DNA of 64,000 nt, from contig NZ_CP129992.1 in the NCBI RefSeq assembly GCF_030505615.1, forward strand, positions 2,604,001 through 2,668,000, written 5' to 3'. The notes beneath the pieces were generated by a model. The model did no database searches. It was not told where the DNA came from and saw only the letters and a program-made list of their open reading frames with translations. This DNA is from Salinibaculum rarum. GTDB taxonomy: Archaea; Halobacteriota; Halobacteria; Halobacteriales; Haloarculaceae. This document shows positions 36,622 to 58,560 of this stretch, piece by piece (position 1 is the first letter of the stretch; each line of letters opens with the position of its first letter). A program made the position numbers and the translations under genes.

Positions 36622-36810
36622 CTTCTAGTTGCAGAGACCATAGTGTGCGTTTGATAGTGTATCGACCACCAAGTAGCCACGATCAAATAGAACTTCGCCA
36701 TCGACAGACAGCTATCCTCCGCTACAAATCCGTTTCCGAATCAGAAGGCAAAGCGACTGTCAACCCTGATTCCCGACAAAAACACCGCAGAATCCGCGAG
36801 TCCCGGGGAA

Positions 36811-36816
36811 CTTATC
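36811..36816 (+). promoter_or_regulatory. TATA-like box for the gene at 36841
   Basis: CTTATC centred 27 bases before GTG 36841, supporting a leaderless GTG start. Confidence 0.45.
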
Positions 36817-36840
36817 CGCCAGGGTGCAGAGTACACGACA

Positions 36841-38959: not shown

Positions 38960-39658
38960 TTATTTCTCCACGTAGGACGGCCGTTCGGCGTAGTCGATGG
39001 GATCTGTCGCTCCGAGATTTTGGAATGCCTGGAGTCGAAACGCGCACGCGTCACACGTCCCGCAAGCCGGTTCTTCCGCTCGGTAGCAACTCCACGTCAA
39101 TTCGTAGGGGACGTTGAGTTCAAGTCCGCGCTCGGCGATCTCTGTTTTCGACCACTCAACGAAAGGCGCAATAAGGTCGATGTTCGTCTCGGGTTTGGTT
39201 CCAACGTTCATCACTTGCTGAAACGCGTCGAAAAACTGCGGGCGGCAATCTGGGTATCCGGAGAAGTCCTCGCTGTGCGCGCCGATAAACACCGCTGAAC
39301 AGTCGTGTGCCTCGGCATAGGAAGTTGCCATCGATAACAGATTCGCATTCCGGAACGGGACGTAGGAACTCGGGATCTCCTCACTCTCCAAATCGGCGTC
39401 CTCCACGTCGATATCTGCATCAGTAAGGCTGGAGGTACCGATTCGAGCAAGGTGCCGTGTTTCAACATGGAGAAAGTCTGCTGCGTCAACCTCCTCTGCA
39501 AGGGCTTTTGCACACTCGCGTTCCTTGATTTCCGTTTCCTGGCCGTACGAGGTGTGAAAAAAATACGGGTCGTAACCGCGTTTCATCGCCTCGTAAACCG
39601 CCGTCGCGCTATCCATGCCGCCCGATACGAGGATCACTGCTCGATTATTGTCTGTCAT
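38960..39658 (-). CDS. queC: 7-cyano-7-deazaguanine (preQ0) synthase QueC
   Basis: 232 residues. PP-loop ATPase start VILVSGGMDSATAVYEA and a C-terminal zinc site CYRAEEPACGTCDAC. It turns 7-carboxy-7-deazaguanine into preQ0 using ATP and ammonia. In haloarchaea preQ0 feeds tRNA archaeosine; next to a DpdA-like gene it could also feed DNA modification. 83 bases downstream of queE in a queD-queE-queC transcript. Confidence 0.95.
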   Translation of the reverse strand: MTDNNRAVILVSGGMDSATAVYEAMKRGYDPYFFHTSYGQETEIKERECAKALAEEVDAADFLHVETRHLARIGTSSLTDADIDVEDADLESEEIPSSYVPFRNANLLSMATSYAEAHDCSAVFIGAHSEDFSGYPDCRPQFFDAFQQVMNVGTKPETNIDLIAPFVEWSKTEIAERGLELNVPYELTWSCYRAEEPACGTCDACAFRLQAFQNLGATDPIDYAERPSYVEK

Positions 39659-39741
39659 GAGTTGCTAGTCAAGATTTTCCCAAGCCGTCTTCGAGTGCTG
39701 CCACTCCCTGCTGCTGATCATTGCGCATGCAGCTTCACAGG

Positions 39742-40521
39742 TCATGTTCCTGGTGCGTCGTTCCATAGATCGACATGCAGCCGTGGCGTGTACCGATACC
39801 CGTACTCTGTCGCCAGTTCCGCCACCTCATTTCGAGTCTGTTCCAACTGGTCACGGGTCATCCCTTCCGGCATCAACAAGACATCCGAGTCAGCTACGGT
39901 CGTACTCGTCGCAGAGCGGACTTGCTTAATGATTGTTTCAATCTCCGGCATATCGTCAGGCCCCGTTACGACGAACTTCAGTTGGCTCTCGTAACTGTCG
40001 ACGAGTTCCGCAAGCGCTTCCATATTGAGCCGGCGCTTCTCGTGGCGTTCAGCCCACTCGCCGTCACCTTTTGGATCTTTCTGTTCGGTTGGTGTGCTAC
40101 TCGTCAGTTTCGGGCTGATGCTGGCCAGGTCTATTTGCGCATCTTGGTAGAGAGTCCCGTTTGTCTCGACTGTCGTGTGATAGCCTGCTTCGCTGAGACG
40201 GTCAAGCAAGCCTGCTGTCTTGTCGTGCATCAGTGGCTCACCGCCAGTCACCACCACATGGTCAGCCTGGTCATGACTCTCGACCTCGGCGATGATCTTC
40301 TCGATGCTCATCCATGCTTGCGTCGGCTCCCACGATGTATGATAGGAATCGCAGAACCAACACCGGAGATTACACCCACTAGTCCGGACGAACACAGACG
40401 GGACACCCGCGAGCATGCCCTCCCCTTGCAGTGAGTAGAACAATTCGTTAACAGGGAGACCATCCTCAACATCTGGCTGAGACCGCTCTTCTCGGGTGTC
40501 AGCGTCAGCATTAACGGGCAT
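39742..40521 (-). CDS. queE: 7-carboxy-7-deazaguanine synthase QueE
   Basis: 259 residues. Radical SAM motif CNLRCWFC (CxxxCxxC, residues ~50-57) and a glycine-rich VVVTGGEPLMH. Converts carboxy-tetrahydropterin to 7-carboxy-7-deazaguanine. The ATG at 40521 overlaps the queD stop (TGATG); a TTG just before it is less likely. The middle gene of the preQ0 operon. Confidence 0.95.
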   Translation of the reverse strand: MPVNADADTREERSQPDVEDGLPVNELFYSLQGEGMLAGVPSVFVRTSGCNLRCWFCDSYHTSWEPTQAWMSIEKIIAEVESHDQADHVVVTGGEPLMHDKTAGLLDRLSEAGYHTTVETNGTLYQDAQIDLASISPKLTSSTPTEQKDPKGDGEWAERHEKRRLNMEALAELVDSYESQLKFVVTGPDDMPEIETIIKQVRSATSTTVADSDVLLMPEGMTRDQLEQTRNEVAELATEYGYRYTPRLHVDLWNDAPGT

Positions 40522-40982
40522 CAATAAGTAGCACAGAGTTCGCCCGTTTCCCGCACTTCAACACCGACATCGGACACGGTATCTGGGAACTCATCGAGCA
40601 TCCGCTCCTCGAGAACGACACTCATCACTTCTGCCGTTGGGGGATGCTCAAGGACAACTAAGGCGTCCTCATCACCGCTCATCTCAAACGCTTCGATCAA
40701 AGGGTCACCTCGTTCAACGAGGAATTTATGATCCCAATCAGATATTACGGAAGTAATTTCTCCTTTATCAACAATCCAGCCTTCATCAGTGAGTTCTCCA
40801 GTAACCTCCACTTGGATCTCATAATTGTGTCCATGCGGTCGTGAACACTTCCCGTCATGGTGGAGAATCCGGTGCCCACTACTGATTCGGATTGGTCGGT
40901 CAGAACCAACTTTCAAGACTCGTTTATCAGCAGTTAGATCCGTTGTATGTTCTTGACCTTCTTCGAGTAAACTTGAGGGCAT
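40521..40982 (-). CDS. queD: 6-carboxytetrahydropterin synthase QueD
   Basis: 153 residues. Zinc/active site ISSGHRILHHDGKCSRPHGH with Cys and the HGHNY motif, then Asp/His in ISDWDHKFL and Glu in HPPTAEVM. Makes 6-carboxytetrahydropterin from dihydroneopterin triphosphate. First gene of the operon, with a TATA-like TTTTAAGTAA (41003-41012) 26 bases upstream. A longer charged N-terminus (~30 residues) than in bacteria is usual for halophiles. Confidence 0.93.
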   Translation of the reverse strand: MPSSLLEEGQEHTTDLTADKRVLKVGSDRPIRISSGHRILHHDGKCSRPHGHNYEIQVEVTGELTDEGWIVDKGEITSVISDWDHKFLVERGDPLIEAFEMSGDEDALVVLEHPPTAEVMSVVLEERMLDEFPDTVSDVGVEVRETGELCATY

Positions 40983-41254
40983 ACCATGGGATTACTGCGA
41001 TATTACTTAAAATTGCCTATCAGCACGAAAACAATTCTGTCCGGCCCGTTACTCTTTGATAAATCCCGTATCGTTTCAGTAACAGAGAAAGTGTACCCAA
41101 CACGTTCTACTTAGTACGAGTATGTTCATGACATTTCACAAAATATTTTCAAATCACGCATATGGAAGAAACGACACCGAAATAACTACTTCCGGTGGGG
41201 TTTAGCAGGATTCAAATAACAGGATACATACCTCAGTGTAGGTGACTGAGGAAG
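40983..41254. promoter_or_regulatory. Divergent control region queD / dpdA
   Basis: 272 bases. Leftward: TATA-like box at 41003-41012 for queD. Rightward: two candidate TATA elements, TTTAGC (~41201) and CAAATAAC (~41213), before dpdA. AT-rich centre. The shared region implies the preQ0 genes and the transglycosylase operon can be controlled together. Confidence 0.5.
41231..41251 (+). promoter_or_regulatory. Perfect hairpin covering the dpdA ribosome site
   Basis: CCTCAGT / ACTGAGG with a 7-base loop. The right arm contains GAGG, the likely Shine-Dalgarno site 3-4 bases before GTG 41255. If transcribed (start near 41229) it would hide the ribosome site; if transcription starts inside it, it would instead be an operator. 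Confidence 0.55.
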
Positions 41255-43546
41255 GTGCGATTTTATGTACCGGAATGGGAGGATCATGTTGACGCGGAGT
41301 ATGACTTCGCGACCGACGAGCACTCATCTATCACACGGAGTGAGCGGAATCTTGCGTACATATGGGATGTCTTTGATAGAGATCCCACGGAGACGCCAAT
41401 CGATGGTATTCTAATATCGCGCGAACAGATCGAGGAGAGCCCTGAGCGTGCACGCCGATTGAAAGAATATGGAGTATACGATGCGCCAGATGATGGGACC
41501 ACCCTTGCTGTCCCAGAGTGGTTGCCGACGATCAGCGATTGTGGTGCCTGGGGGTACAAGGAGCTCCCCTTCCCGCCTTATGGGAACGAAGAGATGCTCT
41601 CCTTTTATGAGAATCTCAACGTCGATATCGGGGTGACGATTGACCACCTCGTACTTGGGAGCGGTCATGCTGCACGACTCTATCTAAACGAGACTGCATT
41701 TCCGGACGACTTTGGGGAAACCGATTTACCCGACGTAATCACGGATCACATTGATGTGATGATTGATGAGTGGCCAGAACCTGAATCCTGGCCAGATTAT
41801 GTCGAAAGCCATGAGCCATCAATAACGAAGGTTGGACCGGCAGAAATGCCAGCAGACCGGCTGTTCGAGATCGCCCTGGGTGAAATCGATCCTGAGGAGG
41901 AAGCTGATGAGGTAAAGCGTCGTGTCAAGACCTATCTTCGGAATATCGCTGACGATCCGCGAATTGTCTACCGTGATGACGATATGCAGTTCCGGTATGA
42001 CTTGACACTAGAAAACCTTCGCCAGATGCGAGAGTACTACGAGTCCGGCGACTATTCGTTCAGGCTCATGTGCGCTATTCAGGGGTGGGATACTGCATCC
42101 TACGCTAATGCCACGCGAGCGGCCCTCGCAGCAGGATACAATTATCTCGGGATTGGCGGTGTCGCGGGGAGCCAAGAAGATGCTGTGAAGCGGTACGTCT
42201 CTGCGGTTGGCGAGGTGGTGAAAGACTACGAGCGTGCCCATGAAACACGCGTCGACACACACGTCTTTGGCTTTGCCAAGACGGGGGCATTCGACACCAT
42301 CGGGCGTAGCGGTATGTCGAGTTTCGACAGTGCGAGTATGCTTCGTGCAGCGTGGACTGGTGGGGAGAACTACCACTTGGATACGCCAGGGCAACGTCGT
42401 CGGTACGATGCCCTTCGCGTCCGGTATCCAGGACATGCGGGTGATCTTACAGATGCGATCGAGACAGCCCTATGGAGTCAAGAAATCCTCACCGCTCTGC
42501 GTGCGTACGACCGTGGCAACGCTCTGACTGACGCAATTGAAACGTGGCACACAGAAGCGAAGCGGTCACTGGCAGCACTCGAGGGACACCTCGCTGAGAA
42601 CCGTTGGAAGGAGCCGTACAACCAGCACCGAATCCGGGATCTCAAGGAAGCATTCCGTACTGAATATGAGTACGGTCGTGAAGTGAAGGCAAACTTCAGC
42701 GACCGGTTTAGGAAGGCGATAATCAAACTCCTTCGAGACGACAACCCCGACAACCCGAAGGACTTCGATGAATATCTTGAGGTCATCCAGAAAGCAGAGG
42801 AGTCTCTGGAGCAGTTCCCGCAGACCGTTGACCGGATAAATTACCAACTTGAAAGAGGAGTCCCTGAATGCTCTTTTGGGACGGTGTGGACCGTTGTCGA
42901 AGCCTATACAGAATTTACTGGTGATGAGGACCACCGTGACGGGTACCGATCCTTGCTTCGGGATCGGGCGTGGGAAGACTGTTCGTGTCCTGTCTGTACT
43001 AGTCTCGGTATTGATGTTGCAATCTTCCGGGGAAACAATCGAAACCGTCGACGTGGGTTCCATAATACGCGCCGATTCTACGACCAATTCGAGCATGAAT
43101 TGCCAAAACTACTCGTCCTCACGAAAGGTGGAACATCATTAACACCTAGACAACCGGTTGAAGACTTTCTCAGCGAACACCGCAGTCACTTCTGGAAACA
43201 CGTCCACGACTTACCCGTCGCCGAAGTTGGAGTTGTCACTGCGGAGGGTGTTCATGAGTGGTGGGACCAGCCACCAGAAACCCTGTCATTCGCACCACAC
43301 AAACTCAAAGAGCAACTCGTCGAACAGTGTGGTCGGTACCAAGCTATCTATATTGATGGGGCGAATTGGGACACGTCGAAGGAGATGCAAACCGCACTTG
43401 AATCGGCTGGATGTGACGTGTGGGTATTCGAGACGCCTGCTGACTTACGGGCAGCAGTTCTTGACAGGCTAGACTACGATGAACGGACGATTCCACCGCA
43501 TCCTGAGCGAGAGAAGGCCAACCAAGTCGGACTCACAGATTTCTAA
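41255..43546 (+). CDS. dpdA: DpdA-like transglycosylase (TGT family, 763 aa)
   Basis: TGT-superfamily protein. Signs: VDIGVTIDHLVLGS (~128-141), the strand LMCAIQGWDTASYANATRAA followed by YNYLGIGGVAG, a nucleophile-type SSFDSASMLRAAW (Asp ~358), and a zinc site CSCPVC (~576) with a later His. A ~150-residue C-terminal extension follows. DpdA enzymes exchange guanine for preQ0 in DNA; this one sits opposite queC/E/D and starts a five-gene operon. The size and position argue against an ordinary archaeosine tRNA enzyme, but a tRNA target is not excluded. GTG start 41255 keeps the RFYVPEW beginning. Confidence 0.78.
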   Translation: MRFYVPEWEDHVDAEYDFATDEHSSITRSERNLAYIWDVFDRDPTETPIDGILISREQIEESPERARRLKEYGVYDAPDDGTTLAVPEWLPTISDCGAWGYKELPFPPYGNEEMLSFYENLNVDIGVTIDHLVLGSGHAARLYLNETAFPDDFGETDLPDVITDHIDVMIDEWPEPESWPDYVESHEPSITKVGPAEMPADRLFEIALGEIDPEEEADEVKRRVKTYLRNIADDPRIVYRDDDMQFRYDLTLENLRQMREYYESGDYSFRLMCAIQGWDTASYANATRAALAAGYNYLGIGGVAGSQEDAVKRYVSAVGEVVKDYERAHETRVDTHVFGFAKTGAFDTIGRSGMSSFDSASMLRAAWTGGENYHLDTPGQRRRYDALRVRYPGHAGDLTDAIETALWSQEILTALRAYDRGNALTDAIETWHTEAKRSLAALEGHLAENRWKEPYNQHRIRDLKEAFRTEYEYGREVKANFSDRFRKAIIKLLRDDNPDNPKDFDEYLEVIQKAEESLEQFPQTVDRINYQLERGVPECSFGTVWTVVEAYTEFTGDEDHRDGYRSLLRDRAWEDCSCPVCTSLGIDVAIFRGNNRNRRRGFHNTRRFYDQFEHELPKLLVLTKGGTSLTPRQPVEDFLSEHRSHFWKHVHDLPVAEVGVVTAEGVHEWWDQPPETLSFAPHKLKEQLVEQCGRYQAIYIDGANWDTSKEMQTALESAGCDVWVFETPADLRAAVLDRLDYDERTIPPHPEREKANQVGLTDF

Positions 43547-43548
43547 CG

Positions 43549-44253
43549 ATGGACATACTTGTTATCGATCAGTGTTCCAAGTCCAAGGAATATCGTGATG
43601 AGTTCTTGCCATACGATGCTGAGACTATCGATGCAAACACAATAGAGGACCTCCGAGAACGACCACAGACGCCAGTAATAGAAGCCCGAAAATTGTATTC
43701 TGGCCGCCAGCAGCAGTACGTCGATGACGCACTCGGCAAACTACGGGAGAATGGAGACACTGTCGATCGGTATTTCATTAGCGCAGGATTTGGTTTGGTG
43801 GAGGAGACTGACCCCCTCCCGCCGTACAATGTCACTTTTGCTGACTTCTCTCCAACTGAGATTCGGGAGCGGGCTGAAGAGCTTGACATCCAATCCGATA
43901 TTTTGGCGCTGGTGACCCAGGAGTACGATATTATTTTCTTCGCCTTGGGGAGCGACTACATCAAGACAATGGCTCTTAAGACGGTGCTTGATGCAGTCCC
44001 CCAAGATACGTGGGCCGTCTGTTTCAATCAAGAGTCCGTGACTGAGAGATTTTCTAATGCTCTCTCACTGCCGGCACGAACGGAAGAAGCGAAGGCTCAA
44101 GAAACGATCGTCGTTGCTCTTAAGGGACGGTACTTACAGAACTTCGCTGATCACCGATCACACGGAAAACAGGTTTCAAGCCTTGGAGATATTGAGACGT
44201 TCTGTACGACGGAATACACCGCTCAAAGTGACCTCGATATATCCGATTTCTGA
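43549..44253 (+). CDS. DUF6884-like protein linked to the transglycosylase
   Basis: 234 residues, two bases after dpdA. Pattern: DILVIDQCSKSKEY at the start, then ARKLYSGRQQQYVDDAL and DRYFISAGFGLVEETDPLPP, YNVTF. This matches the DUF6884/YaaA-like family (CS-x-SK ... LY-x-G-R ... SA-x-x-G-L). Such proteins recur beside TGT-like genes. It could process the inserted base or bind modified DNA; that is inference. Confidence 0.65.
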   Translation: MDILVIDQCSKSKEYRDEFLPYDAETIDANTIEDLRERPQTPVIEARKLYSGRQQQYVDDALGKLRENGDTVDRYFISAGFGLVEETDPLPPYNVTFADFSPTEIRERAEELDIQSDILALVTQEYDIIFFALGSDYIKTMALKTVLDAVPQDTWAVCFNQESVTERFSNALSLPARTEEAKAQETIVVALKGRYLQNFADHRSHGKQVSSLGDIETFCTTEYTAQSDLDISDF

Positions 44254-44314
44254 ACTGTAATTTTCATTTCATTAACTTTATTACCCAGCCCGAGCTACCC
44301 GAGCGCGTCGCGCT

Positions 44315-45349
44315 ATGCTGTATCGAGAACGAACTTTGGAGACCCCACATGGGACAGTCAAAACCCCTGTCCTTTTTCCCGTGAGAAATATCGGGAAGCG
44401 GTCTTCTGATAACACACCGGAGTACGTGGATAGTATCCCTGATCTGAATACAGGGATGGTGAACGCTCGGGCAATCAGACAACGCGATCCTCAGTGGGAG
44501 CGTATTCAACAGGGGGCGTCGATTCGAGACGAAATGGAGGTCCCGGACGAGACAGTCCTGTTTGCAGATAGTGGTGGCTTCGACTTTGCGGATGATGCGG
44601 TTGACACCACCCCAGAACGAACCCTCGAAACGCAACGGGCTATTGGTGCGGATATCTTTGGCACTGTTGATTTACCCATCGCGCGTGAGAACCGGTCAGC
44701 AGAAAATCAGCGCCGTATCGAAGAGAGCACGAGACTTGCGCTCACAGCGAGTGATTTGCATGACGGAGAGGAGTTACTCCTCGCAAGTGTTCACGGATAT
44801 GACCCTGAAACGGTCCGGAATACACTCCGTCATCTTGAGCGAAACGGCGACTTCGATGGGTACGCCGTGGGGAGTATGGTCCCCATTAGGACGGACTATG
44901 AAAAGGTTACAAAACTGATACTTGCTGCACGGCAAGCAACTGACAAGCATCTTCATGTGTATGGCCTCGGCGGAATCGTATATCAGCCACTGCTATTGTA
45001 TCTGGGAGTCGATAGTTTCGACTCAACCGCATTCATTCGAAGTGCAGGGAACCGGAACTACCTGATCCCAGGGTTCGGTGGTGAAGAGTTGCAAAATGTC
45101 GAAGAGCTAGATCATCTCCCGTGTTCGTGCCCCGTCTGTAGTTCTCACGACTACCAGACTATTCGGGCTGACCGGGATCTATTGACCCAACATAATCTCT
45201 GGTCGCTCGTGACAGAGTTGCGTCGGTTCCGGTTCATGGCCGCTGCCGACGAAGAAATCGAGTCGTACCTCGATCTCCGTTTCCAGGGGAATGCTGTGAC
45301 ACAACGTGCATATCAAATCGCCAAACAACAAGTCCGGAGGCTCACATGA
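44315..45349 (+). CDS. Second TGT-family transglycosylase (344 aa)
   Basis: Full TGT catalytic core: ETVLFADSGGFDFADDAV (DSGGF, Asp ~85), YAVGSMVP, HVYGLGG, nucleophile VDSFDSTAFIRSA (Asp ~236), and zinc site CSCPVC (~270) plus a later His. It lacks the PUA-type tail of archaeosine tRNA enzymes, pointing to a different substrate, plausibly DNA. Stop overlaps the next gene (ATGA). Two TGT paralogues in one operon suggest strand, site or base division of labour, or a heteromer. Confidence 0.82.
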   Translation: MLYRERTLETPHGTVKTPVLFPVRNIGKRSSDNTPEYVDSIPDLNTGMVNARAIRQRDPQWERIQQGASIRDEMEVPDETVLFADSGGFDFADDAVDTTPERTLETQRAIGADIFGTVDLPIARENRSAENQRRIEESTRLALTASDLHDGEELLLASVHGYDPETVRNTLRHLERNGDFDGYAVGSMVPIRTDYEKVTKLILAARQATDKHLHVYGLGGIVYQPLLLYLGVDSFDSTAFIRSAGNRNYLIPGFGGEELQNVEELDHLPCSCPVCSSHDYQTIRADRDLLTQHNLWSLVTELRRFRFMAAADEEIESYLDLRFQGNAVTQRAYQIAKQQVRRLT

Positions 45350-46248
45350 GTGGACGACCCACAGTCCGTCCAGTGACACTAGCCCGGTTGGTCGAACTGA
45401 CCAATGCCTGCGGCGAGCGTGCCCGAACAACCGAGGCCCTCGAAAGCGAATTGGAGGTAAGTCATCGCCGGGCCCGAGAAACGATTCTCGAGGCAGTGCG
45501 AATTGGTCTATTGGATGAAAATACCGCTGAGGATGGGGATGGTCCCGAATATTTGACGACGACCGTCGGGGCAAAGTTTCTCACGGCAGTTCAGAACCAA
45601 CAGTGGCAGCAAGCAAGTGCGATTCTGATGACTCGGAGTCCACACTACGGTGCGTTTCTCGAGACAGTCGCCAAACTCGAACCGGCCGAACCACAAACAA
45701 TCCTCGAGCGCCTCCAAGCGGACCACGAACACTCCCCATATGATTTCAACCAGACGAGTATCGACATCGTCGGCGATTGGGGAGAGCGATTGGGTGCGAT
45801 TCAACGGAACGCATTCACTGGTTCGTACTACCGTGCAACAGAAACAACCGCGCCACCGAATTTTCCGTTCATTCTCCTCATGGTGTTCGATGAATTGGAG
45901 GAGACAGCTGGTGTCAACCTGAGTCAGCGGTATCTCTCGATTCCGGAGTTGCGAGAACACGTCTGCGAGCGGTGTGGATGCGTCCGGGCAGCCTTCGATA
46001 AAGCGCTGCTACAACTGGCCAACCAGAACATCGGGAAGGTAGAATTATCGGGTGCACCGATGGATACCGGCGCGAAAGAGGCGAAACTCGGCATCAAGCA
46101 GATTTCGCTCGCAGAGTCCGGTGGCTTAGTCTCGACTAACCAATCGACTGACCTCGTGATGAACGGCGTTGAACAGCACGGCAAGCAGTATTACTACCTC
46201 GCTATCCACGACGACAACCTCACATACACACAGGAGACAAACAAATGA
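45346..46248 (+). CDS. Winged-helix protein of the modification operon
   Basis: 300 residues. An N-terminal winged-helix stretch (VTLARLVELTNACGERARTT then ESELEVSHRRARETILEAV), a helical middle, and a CERCGC knuckle near residue 206. ATGA overlaps on both sides tie it to the transglycosylase and the ATPase. It resembles, in role and place rather than in recognised sequence, the small wHTH partner of ATPases in defence operons. Function not known. Confidence 0.65.
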   Translation: MSGRPTVRPVTLARLVELTNACGERARTTEALESELEVSHRRARETILEAVRIGLLDENTAEDGDGPEYLTTTVGAKFLTAVQNQQWQQASAILMTRSPHYGAFLETVAKLEPAEPQTILERLQADHEHSPYDFNQTSIDIVGDWGERLGAIQRNAFTGSYYRATETTAPPNFPFILLMVFDELEETAGVNLSQRYLSIPELREHVCERCGCVRAAFDKALLQLANQNIGKVELSGAPMDTGAKEAKLGIKQISLAESGGLVSTNQSTDLVMNGVEQHGKQYYYLAIHDDNLTYTQETNK

Positions 46249-47399
46249 GCAACGACGCATTCACCATTACAGACACCGAGCGCGATTACTCGATGTATGA
46301 CATCGAAGCAAACCCGTTCCCGTATAGCCCCGTTCCAGACGAGGATCCAGAGGTATACTGCGGGCAGGACCACGTCGCCGAGGCGGTGAGCGATACCGTG
46401 TCGACACTGCTCGGGTCGGGGAAGTCGAAGCACTTGGTGATTACTGGGAAGTACGGCAATGGGAAGTCACACACCCTGAAATACGCACGATCACTGGTGC
46501 GGGACCGAGACGATGTCCTCGTCGGCTATGTGGCACAACCAGGCGAAGGCTTTCTGGATATTTACCACGAGTTCATGTATGACGTCGGATTTGATCGACT
46601 CCAGGAGATTGCCTACGAATTCTTAGCTGCTGTGGCCCGAGAGGAGATTGACGCGAACCCAATGGGTGCCAACGCAATGGAGGAACTCATTGACAGCGGT
46701 GATGTACTGCTTTCGGAGATAGTGCCGACAGCGATTCAGCGACTGAGCGACATCACAAAATTCGCTGATTTCGCCCGCGCGATTGTTCATATGGTCTACG
46801 AGGATACGAATCTCTATGCCTGGCAGTGGCTGACTGCGGAGGGTATTCGCTACGAGCAGCGCAAAGAGATGGAGATTCATAGCGCCTTAGATGATGACAC
46901 TATGGGTGTCCGGGCGTTCACGTCGTTCAAGAATCTCTTGCTGGAGTTGGGATATACTGGTGTCTTTGTCTTCATCGACGAGTTCGAAGCGATTGCACGA
47001 CTGAGTAATAAGGACAAGCAGGCAACTCTAAACAGTATTCGGCATCTGATGGATCAGAACAGTTCGGGGTTGTCAATCCTGTTTGGATGTGCTCCGGAAG
47101 TATGGCAGGATGTGATGAGTGAGTACCACGCCTTTTCTGAGCGAATTGGAAATGAGGTGGCTCTTAAACCACTCACCGACGATCATATTCGCGAACTCGT
47201 CGCAAACTACTTGGATACGACACGGAACAACCGATCCACGTCAATTACTCCCTTTACCCAAGACAGTCTCTCAGTCATACTACAGATGTCGCAAGGGAAC
47301 ATCAGACAGGTATTGTCGACGTGTAGTCAGGCCCTTGATGCCGCAGTCGAAGACGGCCGCGAATCTATTGATGCCGAATTCGTACAAGAGACACTCTGA
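46245..47399 (+). CDS. AAA-type P-loop ATPase of the modification operon
   Basis: 384 residues. Walker A GKYGNGKSH (68-76), Walker B FVFIDEFEAIA (~239-249), sensor-type LSILFGCAPEVW, and a C-terminal lid (DDHIRELVANYLD ... QGNIRQVLSTC). This ORC/Cdc6-like or BREX-type ATPase layout fits a DNA loader or checkpoint. Last gene of the operon with dpdA. It may act with the winged-helix partner to select or gate DNA for modification. Confidence 0.8.
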   Translation: MSNDAFTITDTERDYSMYDIEANPFPYSPVPDEDPEVYCGQDHVAEAVSDTVSTLLGSGKSKHLVITGKYGNGKSHTLKYARSLVRDRDDVLVGYVAQPGEGFLDIYHEFMYDVGFDRLQEIAYEFLAAVAREEIDANPMGANAMEELIDSGDVLLSEIVPTAIQRLSDITKFADFARAIVHMVYEDTNLYAWQWLTAEGIRYEQRKEMEIHSALDDDTMGVRAFTSFKNLLLELGYTGVFVFIDEFEAIARLSNKDKQATLNSIRHLMDQNSSGLSILFGCAPEVWQDVMSEYHAFSERIGNEVALKPLTDDHIRELVANYLDTTRNNRSTSITPFTQDSLSVILQMSQGNIRQVLSTCSQALDAAVEDGRESIDAEFVQETL

Positions 47400-47644: not shown

Positions 47645-48301
47645 CTACGGCCACTCAGGGTGATAAAGTGTCTGTAGGTTCTCGTGCACTTGCTGGCCAA
47701 ACCCGGTCGTATTGAGTTCATTATGGCTGGTTTCGTAAGCAAGATCAAGATGGAGCGCCCACGCGAGGTGTGCTTGAACTTTTTTCTTCCAAGCGTTGAT
47801 ACTGTCGACGTTTCGGTATCCATCAAGATGCTCTATTCTCATTTGGAATTTTTCTGCTCGCACTTCTGTTTCAGTGTCTGCAACTGGTTCTGTCGCCAGC
47901 AAGTTGACTGTTGCAAGCATCGGAACCCAGTTTCGCTCAAACAGCAGCGAACCGAACAGTGATTGCTCGACCGGCGATAGAGTTTCTTTGGCCCCCACAT
48001 TTGGTTCTCCGTCAAGTCCCTGTTGGGAGGGAGACTCAAAATTGCGGGCTAACCACATTCCCTGTGGACGAAGCGACCCATCTTCGCCGAGTAGTCCCAA
48101 TTTATTCGATCCTAAAAAAGTCCGTATCTGGCTGGGTTTAGTCTGTTCCGCATCAATAGCTACCTGTTCGATTATATCTTCTTCAGTTTCTCCCGATCTA
48201 TCCCAATGTGCTTTCACAAGTTCACATGCGTAGGGAAGGTCTCCCCAAGTAGGTTGTGCACCTGAAAGGTGTGGAGAATCAGACGCAGTTGGATCATACA
48301 T
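47645..48301 (-). CDS. Hypothetical protein in the modification island
   Basis: 218 residues from MYDPTASDSPHLSGAQPTWG. Mostly helical with a winged-helix-like first half (LVKAHWDRSGETEEDIIEQV, then QIRTFLGSNKLGLLGEDG). ATG 48301 has TATA-like GATTATAATC 27 bases upstream, so the start is well supported. Family not recognised. Divergent from the methyltransferase-like gene, with a shared promoter. Confidence 0.65.
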   Translation of the reverse strand: MYDPTASDSPHLSGAQPTWGDLPYACELVKAHWDRSGETEEDIIEQVAIDAEQTKPSQIRTFLGSNKLGLLGEDGSLRPQGMWLARNFESPSQQGLDGEPNVGAKETLSPVEQSLFGSLLFERNWVPMLATVNLLATEPVADTETEVRAEKFQMRIEHLDGYRNVDSINAWKKKVQAHLAWALHLDLAYETSHNELNTTGFGQQVHENLQTLYHPEWP

Positions 48302-48322
48302 GTTGCCAAGTTTTTGCCCTTT

Positions 48323-48332
48323 GATTATAATC
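48323..48332. promoter_or_regulatory. Symmetrical TATA-like element, possibly bidirectional
   Basis: GATTATAATC is a perfect palindrome. It lies 27 bases from the leftward start at 48301 and ~76 bases before the rightward start at 48404, so one element could serve both genes, the right one with a leader of about 50 bases. Confidence 0.45.
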
Positions 48333-48403
48333 CTGGGGGAGCATGTGGAGAGCGCAACGTATAGGTGAATCCCCGCCCGCTCTGCTGACAACAAGGTTCA
48401 CAC

Positions 48404-49174
48404 ATGCCGGAGACTATTCATGAGGTCCGCGACAATCAACGGTATATCGTTGGTGACGTCGAGGACGTTCTTCCTACTCTCGAGTTGAACGCAGACGTGA
48501 TTTGTCTCGATGACGCCTGGGCCCGTCCGCAGCGTGCGGATTGGTTCGGGGTCGAGTACGAGACCCACGATTTCTCTTCGGGTGCGGATTCTGATGGAAT
48601 CACCACGACCGATATTTTGGATCTATGTAAGGATTCGCTGGTCGAGGGTGGGTGGTTGATTGCTGATGCCGATGATTGGCTGTTGCCTCGACTAATCAAT
48701 TATCTCCGTAAAGACTGGGGTGATGTTGCTGCGAGTTACGATGGAGGGGGATACCGCCGAATCGGTGGTGTAACGTTCCAAACGAAGGCTGGAGAACCAG
48801 ACAAAAGCACGCCTGGAATGTATCTCTCGAATGGTGGTTATCCAGTTGTTTTCGCTCATAAGGGAGAGACAGACAGAAGGACATCAGTGTCTGCACGTCA
48901 GATAACACGTCAAGCATCATTTGACGGGGATTGGGGCAGCGTGAAACCAATTGATCCATATCAGGCCTGGCTGGCCGGTCTACTGAATGAGGGAGAACAT
49001 CTGGTGGTACCTTGTGCTGGGACTGCACCTGCTGCGATCGCCGCAGAGCAACTGTTTGGTGAAGACATCCAGTACACATGCATCGACAAAGAGCCGAAAG
49101 CCCTCGAGATGTTCAAAAAGCGTCGGGATGAGGTCAAACTCACTGACGAAGGCGAATTATCGACTTTCGAATAA
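48404..49174 (+). CDS. DNA methyltransferase-like protein with altered catalytic loop
   Basis: 256 residues. The layout resembles a beta-class DNA methyltransferase: early VGDVEDVLPTLELNADVICL then DDAWARP where (D/N/S)PP(Y/W/F) is expected, and late LVVPCAGTAPAAIAAEQLFG followed by YTCIDKEPKAL, like the SAM-binding FxGxG and acidic loop. The catalytic tetrapeptide is not canonical. It may bind rather than methylate, or act on a modified base. No target-recognition partner is evident. Confidence 0.65.
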   Translation: MPETIHEVRDNQRYIVGDVEDVLPTLELNADVICLDDAWARPQRADWFGVEYETHDFSSGADSDGITTTDILDLCKDSLVEGGWLIADADDWLLPRLINYLRKDWGDVAASYDGGGYRRIGGVTFQTKAGEPDKSTPGMYLSNGGYPVVFAHKGETDRRTSVSARQITRQASFDGDWGSVKPIDPYQAWLAGLLNEGEHLVVPCAGTAPAAIAAEQLFGEDIQYTCIDKEPKALEMFKKRRDEVKLTDEGELSTFE

Positions 49175-49245: not shown

Positions 49246-50169
49246 ATGGCCAGAGGTTCTTTGCGTTGGCCTCCAAATCGCTATCCAACCATGTCAGTGG
49301 ATAAAATCACAGGTGTCAGGACTGACTCCGTAATCATACTCAAGGATTCTCTAACAGCTTCTAACAACTCAGGAAATCAGATGGGCTATCTTCGCTCACT
49401 CCCCTATCTATACGAGGAGGGTATCTCTCGTTATACGTTCCCCCCTGGATGGCTTCGGCGGCGATCTCCAGAAACGTTCGATGAAGTCCTAGAAGAGGCA
49501 GAGGATGACTCATGGTTTAATTACCGCGCATTGCCGCCATTCCCCTTCGAGTACACTATAATCGACCAGAATATGGAATCTGACGAACTCTCGTACCAAC
49601 ACATATGTCAATATACTAATCAGGAGATGGAGTGTTATAGTAACGCTCGGACTACGCATAAACTCCTGAGAGCATACCTAAACGAACGCATTGAAGAGCT
49701 ATTCCTTGTGACAGACCAGTCTTCATTCTCTATTAGTGACACGGTGTCGAAAAAACCTCTTCGGGAGGAATTACAACATGCAGAGGTCTTATCCTACGAG
49801 AATATTGCAAAGCAGTATCTTCGACGGGAGTTTGGCACCCCTAGCCTATCGTTCGGAACTACGCTCAACATCTGGCTCCATAGAGCGGCTGCTGATTACC
49901 AGGAGGCAATGGAAGAAACTCCGCGCCGGATCGCGGATCTATTCGAGTTCGATGTTTTAGAACCCGGAATCCGAACCTGGGACTTGTTTGAGTTCTTAGC
50001 GTCAGAGGTCTCGCATGAGAGCACCGATCACATCAACGCGACCGTTAGGCCGTGGATTGAGTCCGATATAACCAAAGTCGAAACTAACATCCGAAACGCC
50101 CTTCAGGAGTTTGATTACGATCGAGAGGCCGTTCGTAGGTTCAGAGAGTCCGGCACCCGACCAGACTAA
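49246..50169 (+). CDS. Unrecognised 307-residue protein of the island
   Basis: Starts MARGSLRWPPNRYPTMSVDK. Rich in aromatic and acidic residues, no Cys clusters or P-loop. Largely helical C-terminal half (IWLHRAAADYQEAMEETPRR, VRPWIESDITKVETNIRN). It overlaps the 3' end of the convergent Csa3-like gene by 4 bases. Lower GC than core genes. No function assigned; position suggests an effector or accessory part of the island. Confidence 0.6.
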   Translation: MARGSLRWPPNRYPTMSVDKITGVRTDSVIILKDSLTASNNSGNQMGYLRSLPYLYEEGISRYTFPPGWLRRRSPETFDEVLEEAEDDSWFNYRALPPFPFEYTIIDQNMESDELSYQHICQYTNQEMECYSNARTTHKLLRAYLNERIEELFLVTDQSSFSISDTVSKKPLREELQHAEVLSYENIAKQYLRREFGTPSLSFGTTLNIWLHRAAADYQEAMEETPRRIADLFEFDVLEPGIRTWDLFEFLASEVSHESTDHINATVRPWIESDITKVETNIRNALQEFDYDREAVRRFRESGTRPD

Positions 50170-50639
50170 TCCTGCTCAACGGACTTCATTTGGGAACGAA
50201 GTTCTCCAGAGAATGTTGACTTCACATATTTTGTCTTGCCACGCATCTCAGCGGTGACGACGTTGGCTGCCTCAAGTTGTCGAACGTGCCTTGAGATGGT
50301 ACTTTTTGCTCTATTGAGCTCTTCCGCGAGTTCAGGGATTCCTATCGCTGATTCGTTTCTAACTACTGCATCAAGTGTCTCAGTTGCGGACTCGGGAATT
50401 GCTCCCGTTATTTGAGGGAGCGGAATTTCTTCGACACTCCCATCAAGATCACTGAACTGGAGTGTTTTGTCTACTGAATCAGGGTGTGCGAGAGTGGCCG
50501 TTCCAATAGCCAGATACAATTCGCGGGGGCCTCCACCAAAGTTGATAACCAACTCACCTTCATTCTCAATTATCACTCTGCTGCACTCCAAAACTGAAGT
50601 TTGAAAGTCCTCAAGTGGAATTGCTCGCTTTGTCACTTT
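50166..50639 (-). pseudogene. csa3: CARF-HTH regulator (Csa3-like), 3' half
   Basis: C-terminal ~155 residues of a regulator split by an IS66 insertion. The end of the CARF fold (CSRVIIENEGELVINFGGGP, then RELYLAIG) is followed by a winged helix (IGIPELAEELNRAKSTISRH, VRQLEAANVV). Joined to the other half (53406-53599) through one copy of the 8-bp target site, the frame continues without change as PDVKV-TKRAIPLEDFQ. Csa3-type proteins sense cyclic oligoadenylate or related ligands and control defence genes. The insertion should abolish it unless excised precisely. Confidence 0.82.
50632..50639. repeat. Target-site duplication, left
   Basis: GTCACTTT, identical to 53406-53413; 8 bases is the length typical of IS66. 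Confidence 0.9.
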
Positions 50640-50647: not shown

Positions 50648-52093
50648 TTACCCCGAGGATTCAACGGCCGGCACAGCCTGAGTCCGTGAAATCATCTCGT
50701 TGTCTCGGGAAACTCGCTTGAGTTCGTCGTAGGGATTGCGTCCCTGCTGGCGCCACGTCGCCAGCAGGGACAGCAGCGTCTCATGAACGAACATTCCGCG
50801 ATCGTTCCGGAGCGTTCCGATAAGTTTCCGTAGGACCACCGGTTCACGGAGCGCGTTTTCGGCGGCGTTGTTTGTCGGAGAGACCGCTGGCTCACCGACG
50901 AAGGTGAGCCAGTGGTCGAGGCCACCTTCTATCTTTCCGAGCAGTGTTGCCACTGGTCCGTCGGGAACTGACCGCTCAATCAACGACTCAACCTCTCTAC
51001 GTGCTACGCGCTGTAGTTCAGCTCGCTCACGAATGGTCAAGTCGCTCTCCAGCCGAGTCTGGAGAGCGACGTACAACTGCTTGAGAGAGTCGTAGATCGG
51101 TTTGCCTTCTGGCTGCTTCTCAGCGACATCTTCAGCCTCTCGCAGAATATGTGCCCAACACCGCTGTAAGTTGTCGCTGAAGGCTGGATAGGCCGTCCAT
51201 CCATCACAGATGACCGTTCCCGCGAAGTCCTCGCCGAGGACTTCCGCGGGAACATCGCTCCCACGACTCTCTCTAACTGCGTACAGCGTGTGGCTCTCGG
51301 TGGTGAACGTCCAGATCCAGGCCTGCTCGCCGTCACGCTTGATTCCTGTCTCATCGACATGAACAACGTCAGCCTGCTGGATCTGACGGCGAATCTGGTT
51401 GTATTCACAGCGACCGGCGCGCGCAGCGCGCTCGGTCGCGTGCCATGCGGACGCGCCCGACAACTCCAGTCCATGCAACTGGTCGAAACGGTCTGCAATC
51501 TTCCGATAGGGGAAGCGATAATCATACCTCGACAGTGCTGATTGGGCGATAACGTTCACCCCGAACTGCCCCTCATCGGGGCAGTCGGGGTGTGTAGCGA
51601 CTGTCTCAGTCCCACAGGAGTCGCACTGGTAGCAGTGGCGGTTGTATTGCGTGACTTCTGGTGGCTGTGGGTCCGGAATCTCCTCGACGAGTCGGGGGCT
51701 GACGCCCACCGACTCGTCGAAGTGTTGGCCACACTCTGGACAACAGTCACAGGTGACCTCAACTTCTTCGTCTGGATCAGCTGTAGAGCGCCACTCCGGG
51801 TCGTGACCGTCCTTTCGTCCGGGAGTGCCGCCATCAGTTCTGACATCGTCGTCTTCGTCGTCTTGCGAGGTCGGGGACTCGTCAGTCCCCGACCGTCGCT
51901 TACTCGGTGGTGTATGTGGATTCTCGTATTTGCGAAGGCGTGTTTCGAGTTCTTCGATTCGCTCTTGCTGCTCTTCGATTCGTTCGTCCTTTTGCTCAAG
52001 TTTCTCCTCCAGCTCGTCAATTCGCTCTTCCATCTGGAGAAACCGTGAGAGAAGTTCGTCTTTGCTGAGGTCATCCCAATCCACTATGACCAC
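50648..52093 (-). CDS. tnpC: IS66-family transposase (TnpC type)
   Basis: 481 residues from GTG. An N-terminal Glu/Arg coiled coil (LQMEERIDELEEKLEQKDER), a zinc-ribbon CDCCPECGQHF, then the DDE core: VHVDETGIKRDG, VICDGWTAYPAF and TNNAAENALREPV. The stop is 8 bases inside the left end. The IS630 insertion lies 9 bases upstream of the start and probably cuts it off from its promoter. Confidence 0.93.
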   Translation of the reverse strand: MVIVDWDDLSKDELLSRFLQMEERIDELEEKLEQKDERIEEQQERIEELETRLRKYENPHTPPSKRRSGTDESPTSQDDEDDDVRTDGGTPGRKDGHDPEWRSTADPDEEVEVTCDCCPECGQHFDESVGVSPRLVEEIPDPQPPEVTQYNRHCYQCDSCGTETVATHPDCPDEGQFGVNVIAQSALSRYDYRFPYRKIADRFDQLHGLELSGASAWHATERAARAGRCEYNQIRRQIQQADVVHVDETGIKRDGEQAWIWTFTTESHTLYAVRESRGSDVPAEVLGEDFAGTVICDGWTAYPAFSDNLQRCWAHILREAEDVAEKQPEGKPIYDSLKQLYVALQTRLESDLTIRERAELQRVARREVESLIERSVPDGPVATLLGKIEGGLDHWLTFVGEPAVSPTNNAAENALREPVVLRKLIGTLRNDRGMFVHETLLSLLATWRQQGRNPYDELKRVSRDNEMISRTQAVPAVESSG

Positions 52094-52103: not shown

Positions 52104-53338
52104 CCTCAGCAGGGCTACCGGGATGGTCTCCGATAGTGACTAGACTAACTTATTGAGATAGTTGTCAAGATGATTCTCGATCCACGAGGAGGCGAAGCTA
52201 AGTTGGTTGGTCAAATTTCCGAACAGTTCTGTGATTCGTCTTCGATACTCATCTCCACCTTCGACAATGAATGGCGAAGATTCCCACTTGAGACTCTTCC
52301 AAACTGGCTCGATCGGATTGAGATCGGGCGATCCCACTGGAAGAAATATCAAATCTATCCCGAGTTCGTGTGCTCGCTTGCGCGTGTACTTACACACGTG
52401 TGACGAGAAATTATCCAACACGAGCAGAATCCGCTTGCCAGGATTCTGCTCGCGGACCTTCTCGAAACACCCGCAAATCTTCTCTTTCTCCTGATTCGGT
52501 GGAAACGACAGGACACTCTCACCGTTGAGGGCGTAGAATCCAGCTGCTGGTGTGTCGATCTTCACCAACTTCCGCTCAATGTGTGGCTCATCAACCGTAT
52601 ACATCCGCTGAGAATTGTCCCACGGTTGTGGGTGAGAGATATCGAAGAATCCGACAACAGCGCCTCCGTCTGTTCGGATATCCTCGTCGCGGTCCCAGTC
52701 TTCGTCGTCAGTATCATCTTCGCGTTTGTTGTGAGGTTGCTCAAGAGCCTCCTCGTCGAACGCGTACCTGACGCGTTCGTCGAGGATTTCTTCGGCGTTC
52801 TCTGGTCGCTCAGGGCGTTTTGTTCGAGGAATGGCGTAGTGGAGGCCGAGTTTATCCAGAAACGTTGGGAGGTAATGTGGGTGATATTCGACATCGAACT
52901 CCTCGTTGAGAAGATGCTGAATCTCTTGTTTCTTCCAGGGCTGTCCCTCACGGAGGCGTGCAATGAGTTGTTCTTGTTCTGCTTCGTCGAGCTTCGGGGG
53001 CCTGCCGCCCCCGAAGTTCGGCGTCAGTTTTCCGAGTCCACCTTCGTTCCACCGTGTCACCCAGTTACTTGCCGTTCCTTGTGAGATCCCTATATCTTCG
53101 GCAGCAGTTGCCAGCGTTGCACCATTGTAGAGCCGTTTGAGAAAGGTGAGGCGTTTGTATTCCTTTATGTCGTCTGCCTCAGCCTGTAATCGGTCAAGTT
53201 CTCCCTCACTCAGATGTTTGACGACATTTCTCTCACGGCCAACCATACACCGTCCAACTCACGCCAGCTTCACAAAAGCTTCCCTGAGATACTAGCGGAG
53301 ACCATCCCTGGAGAAATTCAATTAGCCCTTGTTGAGGG
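52104..53338 (-). mobile_element. IS630-family element nested in the IS66 element
   Basis: Inverted ends share CCTCA-CA-GGGCTA and, further in, GGGATGGTCTCCG-TAGT (52120-52137 and ~53290-53309). TA is duplicated at 52102-52103 and 53339-53340, as for IS630/Tc1-type elements. One transposase gene. About 1.24 kb. Confidence 0.85.
52140..53246 (-). CDS. IS630-family transposase
   Basis: 368 residues. An N-terminal helix-turn-helix (ATAAEDIGISQGTASNWVTR), a linker with RPPKLDEAEQEQL, then the DDE catalytic core: VVGFFDISHPQPW, ILLVLDNFSSHVC and FLPVGSPDLNPIEPVWKSLK. The frame is intact, so the element may be active. An acidic insert (REDDTDDEDWDRDED) in the core is a halophilic trait. Confidence 0.93.
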   Translation of the reverse strand: MVGRERNVVKHLSEGELDRLQAEADDIKEYKRLTFLKRLYNGATLATAAEDIGISQGTASNWVTRWNEGGLGKLTPNFGGGRPPKLDEAEQEQLIARLREGQPWKKQEIQHLLNEEFDVEYHPHYLPTFLDKLGLHYAIPRTKRPERPENAEEILDERVRYAFDEEALEQPHNKREDDTDDEDWDRDEDIRTDGGAVVGFFDISHPQPWDNSQRMYTVDEPHIERKLVKIDTPAAGFYALNGESVLSFPPNQEKEKICGCFEKVREQNPGKRILLVLDNFSSHVCKYTRKRAHELGIDLIFLPVGSPDLNPIEPVWKSLKWESSPFIVEGGDEYRRRITELFGNLTNQLSFASSWIENHLDNYLNKLV

Positions 53339-58559: not shown

Positions 58560-58560
58560 A

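What the first reader, a model, noticed from the sequence alone, without database searches (positions are those of the whole stretch)
38960..47399. Probable archaeal DNA 7-deazaguanine modification island
queC, queE and queD face a five-gene operon led by a 763-aa DpdA-like transglycosylase, then a DUF6884-like protein, a second transglycosylase, a winged-helix protein and an ATPase. In bacterial Dpd islands preQ0 genes plus DpdA insert preQ0-type bases in DNA. The order and the extra transglycosylase differ from the bacterial layout I know, so this may be an undescribed archaeal form. The genes could still serve tRNA archaeosine only.
Basis: partly seen in the sequence, partly recalled or inferred. 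Interest (0 to 1): 0.93.

Follow-up and report, generated by a model that had tools for sequence, protein, structure and literature searches.

The report
Two-transglycosylase archaeal DNA-marking defence island
A salt-loving archaeon carries two related gene islands predicted to swap some guanines in its DNA for an altered base and likely to attack DNA without that mark; unlike classic bacterial versions, each island encodes two different enzymes of the base-swapping family, which suggests an untested variant of the chemistry.

Summary
The genes are real and placed as described, but the island is larger. It runs from queC (38960) through DpdA, a DpdC-like protein, a second transglycosylase (TGT2), a winged-helix protein and a BrxD-like ATPase into a predicted restriction module: DpdH-like ATPase and an 1867-aa YprA/DruE-type helicase, with a PLD nuclease just past the window end. 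The genome holds a second, diverged island (44-77% protein identity) and, elsewhere, ordinary TgtA and ArcS genes for tRNA, so a tRNA-only reading is unlikely. DpdA groups with bacterial DpdA; TGT2 forms its own clade beside TgtA, keeps the catalytic and zinc residues compared, and lacks TgtA's C-terminal extension. Of 391 genomes of the class, 56 have DpdA, 57 TGT2, 55 both. The class of system matches, or is close to, BRIGADE (2025 preprint, haloarchaea). Not in the passages I read: the second transglycosylase, its relatives in archaea outside the class, and second transglycosylases beside bacterial DpdA (31 of 83 loci sampled; one origin of all rejected, p 0.004). Modified bases in DNA, and what TGT2 does, are untested. 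A new variant of a known kind.

The parts
38960..39658 (-). queC, preQ0 synthase
   Evidence: NCBIfam TIGR00364 176 bits over cut-off 150; one of only two full QueC found in the genome
39742..40524 (-). queE, radical SAM 7-carboxy-7-deazaguanine synthase
   Evidence: Radical_SAM 64 bits; PHROG QueE-like 6e-57
40521..40982 (-). queD, 6-carboxytetrahydropterin synthase
   Evidence: PTPS 70 bits; QueD 73 bits, below the curated 89
41255..43546 (+). DpdA, predicted DNA-guanine transglycosylase
   Evidence: NCBIfam DpdA 245 bits over cut-off 200; PDB 7UI4 DNA-guanine transglycosylase 2.4e-35; in the DpdA clade, 100/99; catalytic Asp and zinc site kept
43549..44253 (+). DpdC-like protein (DUF6884/YaaA fold), predicted dPreQ0 nitrile hydrolase
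   Evidence: PADLOC DpdC 3.5e-10; profile match to bacterial DpdC, probability 97.6, 3.3e-12; model pLDDT 92.6, best PDB match YaaA 5CAJ E 5.7e-5
44315..45349 (+). TGT2, second transglycosylase, without the C-terminal extension of TgtA
   Evidence: Pfam TGT 113 bits; TgtA model only 147 of 350 bits needed; own clade 100/93 beside TgtA; three catalytic-site Asp and four zinc ligands kept in 55 of 55 archaeal TGT2
45346..46248 (+). winged-helix protein, predicted DNA-binding
   Evidence: no family match; model pLDDT 83.9, Foldseek matches to winged-helix proteins (RPC62, MarR, SspB at TM 0.40), all weak
46245..47399 (+). BrxD-like AAA ATPase
   Evidence: PF10923 BrxC_BrxD 65 bits over cut-off 22; PADLOC BrxD 5.6e-12
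47645..48394 (-). island-associated protein of unknown function (family f13)
   Evidence: family present in 12 of 59 loci, just before dpdA in several
48404..49174 (+). uncharacterised protein (family f51), doubtful member
   Evidence: family in 2 of 59 loci; no family match
49246..50169 (+). effector-module protein, weak relative of the Salinigranum 288-aa protein
   Evidence: 24% identity, 1.4e-6
50166..50636 (-). C-terminal part of a Csa3-like regulator split by insertion elements
   Evidence: matches residues 67-207 of Salinigranum csa3, 4.5e-27
50648..52093 (-). IS66 transposase inserted in the island
   Evidence: DDE_Tnp_IS66 143.6 bits; a 99.9% identical copy beside island 2
52140..53246 (-). 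DDE_3-type transposase inserted in the island
   Evidence: DDE_3 53.9 bits
53318..53710 (-). N-terminal part of the same Csa3-like regulator
   Evidence: matches residues 1-62 of Salinigranum csa3, 2e-15; Csa3_N 28.4 bits
53970..54734 (+). effector-module protein in the place of family f17
   Evidence: position before the dpdH-like gene only; no sequence match of its own; f17 of relatives matches a protein beside a bacterial DpdH-like NTPase, probability 97.2
54727..57792 (+). DpdH-like AAA ATPase
   Evidence: PADLOC DpdH 2.6e-13; archaeal family against bacterial DpdH probability 99.6, 5e-25
57789..58559 (+). small effector-module protein
   Evidence: short 36% match to the Salinigranum 284-aa protein, 7e-6; only weak family matches
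58560..64000 (+). YprA-family helicase, 1867 aa, continues to 64163; followed outside the window by a 653-aa PLD nuclease at 64225-66186
   Evidence: PADLOC DruE 1.2e-52, DpdJ 4.9e-36; PLDc_2 31.8 bits over cut-off 27 for the nuclease

Best explanation
This is a Dpd/BRIGADE-type island that encodes two TGT-family transglycosylases and is predicted to mark host DNA with a 7-deazaguanine base and likely to restrict unmarked DNA. Predicted working (each step inferred from homology): GTP is turned into preQ0 by FolE (found in island 2 only), QueD, QueE and QueC. DpdA exchanges guanine in DNA for preQ0, and the DpdC-like protein would hydrolyse the nitrile to give dADG. The winged-helix protein and the BrxD-like ATPase would load the enzymes on DNA. 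TGT2 would be a second, catalytically competent DNA transglycosylase working with DpdA, probably as a hetero-oligomer partner or for a second target site, in the place that DpdB has in classic Dpd islands. The DpdH-like ATPase, the YprA-family helicase and the PLD nuclease would then recognise and degrade DNA without the mark. Shown here: the gene content, the families, the conserved active sites, the co-occurrence and the phylogeny. Not shown: any base in DNA, any activity, any complex.
For: DpdA over the NCBIfam cut-off and matching the solved DNA-guanine transglycosylase 7UI4. DpdC domain in 59 of 59 haloarchaeal loci, fused to the end of DpdA in 32 and a separate gene in 27. DpdA and TGT2 in 55 shared genomes of 391, p 1.6e-63 with kinship ignored; both within 25 kb in 52 of those 55, the other 3 on different contigs of drafts (positions). 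DpdA+TGT2+WH+ATPase together in 46 of 59 loci. TGT2-WH recurs in 5 genomes outside the class, with the ATPase in 4, and DpdA 16-23 kb away in 4. Asp89, Asp143 and Asp264 (E. coli numbering) in 55 of 55 archaeal TGT2 and 59 of 59 haloarchaeal DpdA; four zinc ligands in 55 of 55 TGT2. TGT2 ends 51 residues after the zinc histidine, TgtA 183.5 (medians). Separate TgtA and ArcS genes over their cut-offs in this genome. preQ0 supply swaps: queC, D or E in 26 of 59 loci, a YhhQ-type transporter in 5 others (4 genomes), none with both, 28 with neither. DpdH-like ATPase, DruE/DpdJ-type helicase and PLD nuclease in the island. A Haloarcula vallismortis protein of the WH family exists; its virus HVTV-1 carries about 30% dPreQ1 without a DpdA of its own (PMC6884629, passages).
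Against: No DNA was analysed. The partner role of TGT2 rests on co-occurrence and residues; no model of a complex was made. 'In the place of DpdB' is weak: second TGT and DpdB never share a locus (31 and 5 of 83), but Fisher p is only 0.09, 47 loci have neither, and one haloarchaeal locus (L044) has a DGQHR protein beside TGT2. TGT2 has His instead of Gln at E. coli position 187 in 51 of 55, so it may handle another base. The window island lacks folE, has only one YprA helicase, and its Csa3-like regulator is cut by two insertion elements. Its queCDE probably also serve tRNA. 13 of 59 loci miss TGT2, WH or ATPase within the stretch fetched.
Confidence: 0.7

Rival explanations
1. Both transglycosylases and queCDE serve tRNA archaeosine only.
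For: TGT2 is nearer to TgtA than to DpdA; the genome's only two full QueC genes found lie in the islands, so preQ0 for tRNA must come from them or from uptake.
Against: TgtA (615 bits) and ArcS (842 bits) side by side elsewhere in the genome; TGT2 lacks the C-terminal extension; DpdA fits the solved DNA enzyme; DpdA is patchy, 56 of 391 genomes, while TGT matches of any type occur in 388 of 391; restriction genes in the neighbourhood.
Confidence: 0.05
2. Two marks, not one: DpdA with DpdC makes dADG, while TGT2 with the winged-helix protein and ATPase independently inserts another base or marks other sites.
For: TGT2, WH and ATPase form a unit that overlaps by 4 bases and is 16-23 kb from DpdA in 4 genomes outside the class; Gln of TgtA at position 187 is His in 51 of 55 TGT2; both enzymes keep full active sites.
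Against: Almost strict co-occurrence of DpdA and TGT2 points to one joint function; no second base-tailoring gene was recognised.
Confidence: 0.25
3. TGT2 is not a DNA enzyme but a sensor or effector, for example acting on RNA or detecting deazaguanine-bearing viral DNA.
For: Its nearest kin are RNA enzymes; its gene overlaps WH, which overlaps an ATPase of a BREX-like family.
Against: Full catalytic site, loss of the C-terminal extension, no link of TGT2 to one effector type: it stays while neighbours change.
Confidence: 0.12
4. The window island is a decaying, non-working copy, and island 2 is the active one.
For: Regulator split by two insertion elements, no folE, lower GC than most of its left neighbours.
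Against: The other core frames are open and of the usual length; catalytic residues intact; a folE is present in island 2; helicase and nuclease frames open.
Confidence: 0.15

Closest known systems
BRIGADE (Bell et al., bioRxiv 2025, PMC12458937; abstract, outline and passages seen)
   Same: Haloarchaeal, Dpd homologues with a predicted 7-deazaguanine gene cluster, YprA-family helicase scoring best with the Druantia-type model, PLD nuclease.
   Different: The preprint says BRIGADE usually has two YprA helicases; this island has one. Its main text has no hit for transglycosylase, TGT or DpdA; the second transglycosylase, WH-ATPase pair and DpdC fusion are not in the passages seen. Supplements could not be read. 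It reports BRIGADE in haloarchaea only.
Bacterial Dpd system (Salmonella Montevideo type; compared with E. cloacae pPOL9A)
   Same: preQ0 genes, DpdA, DpdC-like protein, DpdH-like ATPase, large helicase and PLD nuclease.
   Different: No island protein had a DpdB, DpdD, DpdE or DpdG match among the PADLOC hits listed (for the helicase 25 of 51 hits were listed); a second transglycosylase, winged-helix protein and BrxD-like ATPase instead.
Bacterial DpdA loci with a second TGT (Paenibacillus pART37; Nostoc and Picosynechococcus plasmids)
   Same: DpdA plus a second, shorter TGT-family protein; DpdC domain fused to DpdA; DpdJ/DpdK-type effectors in Paenibacillus.
   Different: Their second TGTs belong to two other branches of the tree; the DpdC domain is at the front of DpdA, not its end; no WH match and only one 15-bit ATPase match in the 84 bacterial loci.
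BRC systems (PMC12839542, passages)
   Same: A TGT beside BREX-related ATPases.
   Different: BRC has PglZ, DUF6079, HerA/FtsK and no DpdC; no such match among the island proteins scanned.
Archaeosine TGT (TgtA, PDB 1IQ8)
   Same: TGT2 aligns to its catalytic part, E 7.8e-26.
   Different: TGT2 has 147 of the 350 bits required and lacks the C-terminal extension.

Membership tests
BRIGADE | occurs in halophilic archaea | tested here: met
   Island-2 DpdA 80% identical to Salarchaeum sp. JOR-1; the names among the 120 listed hits are haloarchaeal; the eight best TGT2 plasmid hits are haloarchaeal.
BRIGADE | predicted 7-deazaguanine biosynthetic cluster with Dpd homologues | tested here: met
   queC, queE, queD, DpdA, DpdC-like, DpdH-like
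BRIGADE | YprA helicase of the BRIGADE clade | tested here: inconclusive
   Helicase scores higher with DruE (177 bits) than DpdJ (122 bits); no helicase tree with BRIGADE references was made
BRIGADE | usually two YprA helicases (stated as usual, not obligatory) | tested here: not met
   One helicase, 58560-64163, then the PLD gene; no second one in the next 14 kb. A complete relative, Salinigranum marinum, has two
BRIGADE | PLD or PD-(D/E)XK nuclease in the neighbourhood | tested here: met
   PLDc_2 31.8 bits over cut-off 27 at 64225-66186
classic bacterial Dpd | DpdA | tested here: met
   245 bits over cut-off 200, clade 100/99
classic bacterial Dpd | DpdB (DGQHR protein) | tested here: not met
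   phmmer with E. cloacae DpdB: one hit (L044) in the 59 haloarchaeal loci, none in the window's stretch
classic bacterial Dpd | DpdC | tested here: met
   PADLOC 3.5e-10; profile comparison 97.6
classic bacterial Dpd | restriction genes DpdD to DpdK | tested here: inconclusive
   DpdH-like yes (99.6); helicase nearer DruE than DpdJ; PLD family against DpdK only 23.6; DpdD, E, G, I not recognised
classic bacterial Dpd | dPreQ0 or dADG in DNA | not testable with these tools
   needs nucleoside mass spectrometry
TgtA (tRNA archaeosine transglycosylase), for TGT2 | full-length TgtA model and C-terminal extension | tested here: not met
   147 of 350 bits; 51 against 183.5 residues after the zinc His; a separate TgtA scores 615 bits
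BRC | PglZ, DUF6079, HerA/FtsK, GNAT beside the TGT | tested here: not met
   none among the island proteins scanned

The most novel reading that the evidence does not exclude
DNA deazaguanylation by a pair of transglycosylases: TGT2 is a second DNA-guanine transglycosylase and obligate partner of DpdA, and nature has recruited such a partner at least twice from different TGT branches (archaea, cyanobacterial type, Paenibacillus/Chloroflexi type), replacing DpdB and giving a heteromeric enzyme that sets the target sites, or both strands, of the mark.
Probability: 0.35. Interest if true: 0.85.

Novelty: new variant of a known kind. Interest (0 to 1): 0.66.

Why it matters
If right, a base long known from archaeal tRNA is also an archaeal self-mark in DNA, made by a two-enzyme version of the Dpd chemistry. 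It would offer a candidate for how HVTV-1, a halovirus without a DpdA, gets about 30% of its guanines replaced, help explain why DpdB is thought dispensable in some bacterial clusters (a point stated in PMC12839542), and show that searches requiring dpdA plus dpdB, such as GATOR-GC (PMC11888242), miss islands of this kind. A conserved core with exchangeable neighbours would be a natural testing ground for how a DNA mark is read by different restriction machines.

Tried and rejected
tRNA-only function: rejected because TgtA and ArcS lie elsewhere. TGT2 as a viral gene: tblastn against 50,697 phage records found nothing; a viral-contig scan gave two distant TGTs at 25-27%. A strict 'TGT2 or DpdB' rule: not significant (p 0.09) and one counter-example (L044). 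One common origin of all second TGTs: rejected (p 0.004), but archaeal plus cyanobacterial-type as one clade is not rejected (p 0.27). Bacterial equivalents of the winged-helix protein: none by profile comparison with eleven bacterial families. The solved-structure searches with the WH, DpdC-like and ATPase profiles gave only chance-level hits; the Foldseek match of WH to SspB has TM 0.40 only. Two early trees held wrong-strand or wrong-frame picks for several TgtA rows; these were replaced before the tree used here. Literature: the searches listed no paper on a second transglycosylase in Dpd islands that I recognised, and the passages that I opened of five papers do not mention one; no paper was read whole. 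The three founding Dpd papers are not held, so what they say is recalled or taken from later papers.


Full report
What is there. The eight genes of the finding are present at the stated coordinates. queC, queE and queD lie on the minus strand; a 763-aa DpdA, a DpdC-like DUF6884 protein, a second TGT-family protein (TGT2), a winged-helix protein (WH) and a BrxD-like ATPase follow on the plus strand. dpdA and dpdC are 2 bases apart and tgt2-wh-atp overlap by 4 bases each, so they look like one operon. Transposases aside, the island's genes have a GC of 0.45-0.55; the four genes to the left have 0.55-0.62.

The island is longer than described. To the right come a Csa3-like regulator in two parts with two insertion elements between them, a DpdH-like ATPase (54727-57792), a small protein, and a helicase that starts at 58560 and runs off the window. 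The whole-genome sequence shows the helicase ending at 64163 (1867 aa) and a 653-aa PLD nuclease at 64225-66186. The helicase scores 177 bits with a DruE model and 122 with a DpdJ model. A plasmid of Salinigranum marinum carries a complete relative in one piece: queC folE queE queD, DpdA, DpdC, TGT2, WH, ATPase, HNH, csa3, four more genes, two DEAD helicases and a PLD protein, with three small genes in between.

A second island. The same genome has another copy at C1:1489-1498 kb with DpdA and the DpdC domain fused into one 967-aa protein, TGT2, WH, ATPase, queD, queE, folE and queC. Protein identities between the two islands are 51% (DpdA), 44% (DpdC domain), 71% (TGT2), 58% (WH), 76% (ATPase) and 67-77% (queCDE). 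It continues into other effector-like genes: a UvrD/PD-(D/E)XK protein, a GmrSD-like protein and a six-gene block also seen beside the core in another genome. The genome also has a TgtA (615 bits, cut-off 350) and an ArcS (842 bits, cut-off 440) side by side at C1:276-280 kb; the two TGT2 score 148 and 136 bits with the TgtA model. Its only two full QueC matches are the two island copies, so preQ0 from the islands probably also feeds tRNA. In a search of 37 chosen genomes, 10 of 10 DpdA-bearing genomes without queC in the locus had one QueC elsewhere, while in several others the island copy was the only one.

How general it is. Of 391 genomes drawn from the class, 56 have a relative of this DpdA at E 1e-20. 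With TGT2 as query the scores fall in two groups: 57 genomes with 424-776 bits and then TgtA-type matches at 112 bits or less. 55 genomes have both, one DpdA only (G166, contig end), two TGT2 only (G131, which has a diverged DpdA of 301 bits by NCBIfam; and G034, a remnant); p 1.6e-63, kinship ignored. Among 59 loci (57 fetched ones plus the two of this genome) the DpdC domain is present in all, fused in 32 (checked by profile) and separate in 27; ATPase in 52, TGT2 in 50, WH in 48; the four together in 46, with 13 missing at least one, some of them at contig ends. queD, queE or queC is in 26; five of the others, from four genomes, have a YhhQ-type (Pfam Vut_1) gene; none has both and 28 have neither. 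A DruE/DpdJ-type helicase is in 20, a PLD-type family in 19, both in 17; other neighbours are GmrSD (5), UvrD-nuclease (4) and DpdH-like (3 and 5 for two families). The picture is a fixed modification core with changing neighbours. Counts of neighbours are lower bounds because each locus shows only about 8 kb on each side.

Outside the class. A WH profile found 15 of 294 genomes of the phylum, 5 of them outside the class. In these, TGT2 (37-40% identity) and WH stand together, the ATPase too in 4; DpdA over the NCBIfam cut-off lies 16-23 kb away in those 4, and the fifth showed no DpdA match at all. Between them lies a multi-gene block, in three of the four with a full relative of a helicase that matches DpdJ at 5e-68. 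All five have a separate, longer TGT.

Bacteria. A scan of genome contigs with a DpdA alignment gave 80 loci, the best 80 of 249. With four plasmid loci, three of them picked because they had a second TGT, that makes 84, of which 83 have DpdA over 150 bits. 31 have a second TGT, 5 have DpdB, none both; 47 have neither within reach. The difference is suggestive only (p 0.09), and the sample leans towards relatives of the Paenibacillus query. A DpdC domain is fused to DpdA in 55 of 83.

Tree and active sites. In a tree of 77 proteins DpdA is one clade (100/99) including the window's; archaeal TGT2 is one clade (100/93) beside TgtA and E. coli Tgt (98/76 for the join); bacterial second TGTs fall in two places. 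One clade of all second TGTs is rejected (p 0.004); archaeal plus cyanobacterial type is not (p 0.27); archaeal TGT2 plus TgtA without E. coli Tgt is rejected at p 0.03. Only one bacterial tRNA Tgt was included and it has a long branch, so deep order is uncertain. Asp89, Asp143 and Asp264 are kept in every group compared; the zinc ligands are kept in archaeal TGT2 (55 of 55), in the Paenibacillus/Chloroflexi type (22 of 22) and nearly all DpdA, but not in the cyanobacterial type. The Gln at E. coli position 187 is His in 51 of 55 archaeal TGT2 and Gln in 8 of 8 TgtA and 59 of 59 haloarchaeal DpdA. That these residues are catalytic or base-contacting, and that the C-terminal part of TgtA binds tRNA, is recalled from work on Tgt, not taken from a call.

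Structures. The DpdC-like model (pLDDT 92.6) matches YaaA of the DUF328 family best (E 5.7e-5, TM 0.45); PMC12839542 calls DpdC a DUF328 protein. The WH model (83.9) has only weak matches, mostly winged-helix proteins, SspB among them.

How it probably works. preQ0 is made by the que genes or taken up; DpdA puts it into DNA; the DpdC-like protein makes dADG; WH and ATPase target or drive the reaction; TGT2 is a second DNA transglycosylase acting with DpdA; DpdH-like ATPase, helicase and nuclease attack unmarked DNA. All of this is inference. The roles of DpdA, DpdB and DpdC in bacteria and the dispensability of DpdB are taken from passages of PMC12839542 and PMC11888242.

Against the literature. 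BRIGADE (PMC12458937) covers the class in haloarchaea: Dpd homologues, a 7-deazaguanine cluster, YprA helicases, PLD nuclease. This island fits, except that it has one helicase where two are usual and its helicase was not placed in a tree. The main text has no hit for transglycosylase, TGT or DpdA. Hutinet et al. (PMC6884629) already noted a DpdA homologue in Haloarcula vallismortis and proposed that it modifies HVTV-1; a WH protein of the present family from that strain turned up. A survey of archaeal tailed viruses (PMC8651126, passages) reports preQ0 genes and a DpdA homologue in haloviruses. Hence the novelty lies in the second transglycosylase and its repeated recruitment, not in the island as such.

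Noticed in passing
L009:9914-10753 and L110:8367-9200 (contig C3 of the same genome): Two short viral-type DpdA-like proteins on the 560-kb contig (Pfam DpdA 2.9e-16 for the first), the second near a YhhQ-type transporter gene (L110:11372-12109).
   Followed up: partly
window 50640-52133 and L007:710-2201: IS66 copies 99.9% identical over 1.5 kb lie beside both Dpd islands; the window copy and a second transposase split the Csa3-like regulator.
   Followed up: partly
L204:4869-18585: Beyond island 2: a GmrSD-like protein and a six-gene block (213-1572 aa) that also stands beside the Dpd core in L019, a further candidate effector module.
   Followed up: partly
L044:12772-14226: A 484-aa DGQHR (DpdB/DndB-like) protein between DpdC and TGT2, the only one of 59 haloarchaeal loci with a DpdB match.
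   Followed up: partly
L187, L189, L190 near 10001: DpdA with a separate DpdC-like gene in bins titled Lokiarchaeota, Thorarchaeota and archaeon; no second TGT recognised there.
   Followed up: no
window 33638-38013: PD-(D/E)XK proteins and a 693-aa protein left of the island, mostly with higher GC; probably not part of it.
   Followed up: no
L115:7599-12298: Haladaptatus plasmid with two long proteins annotated as tRNA-guanine transglycosylase, distant from TGT2 (31%).
   Followed up: no
L082:6931-8829: A 632-aa protein with weak PglZ C-terminal matches (2e-6) beside TGT2 and a diverged DpdA in G131.
   Followed up: no
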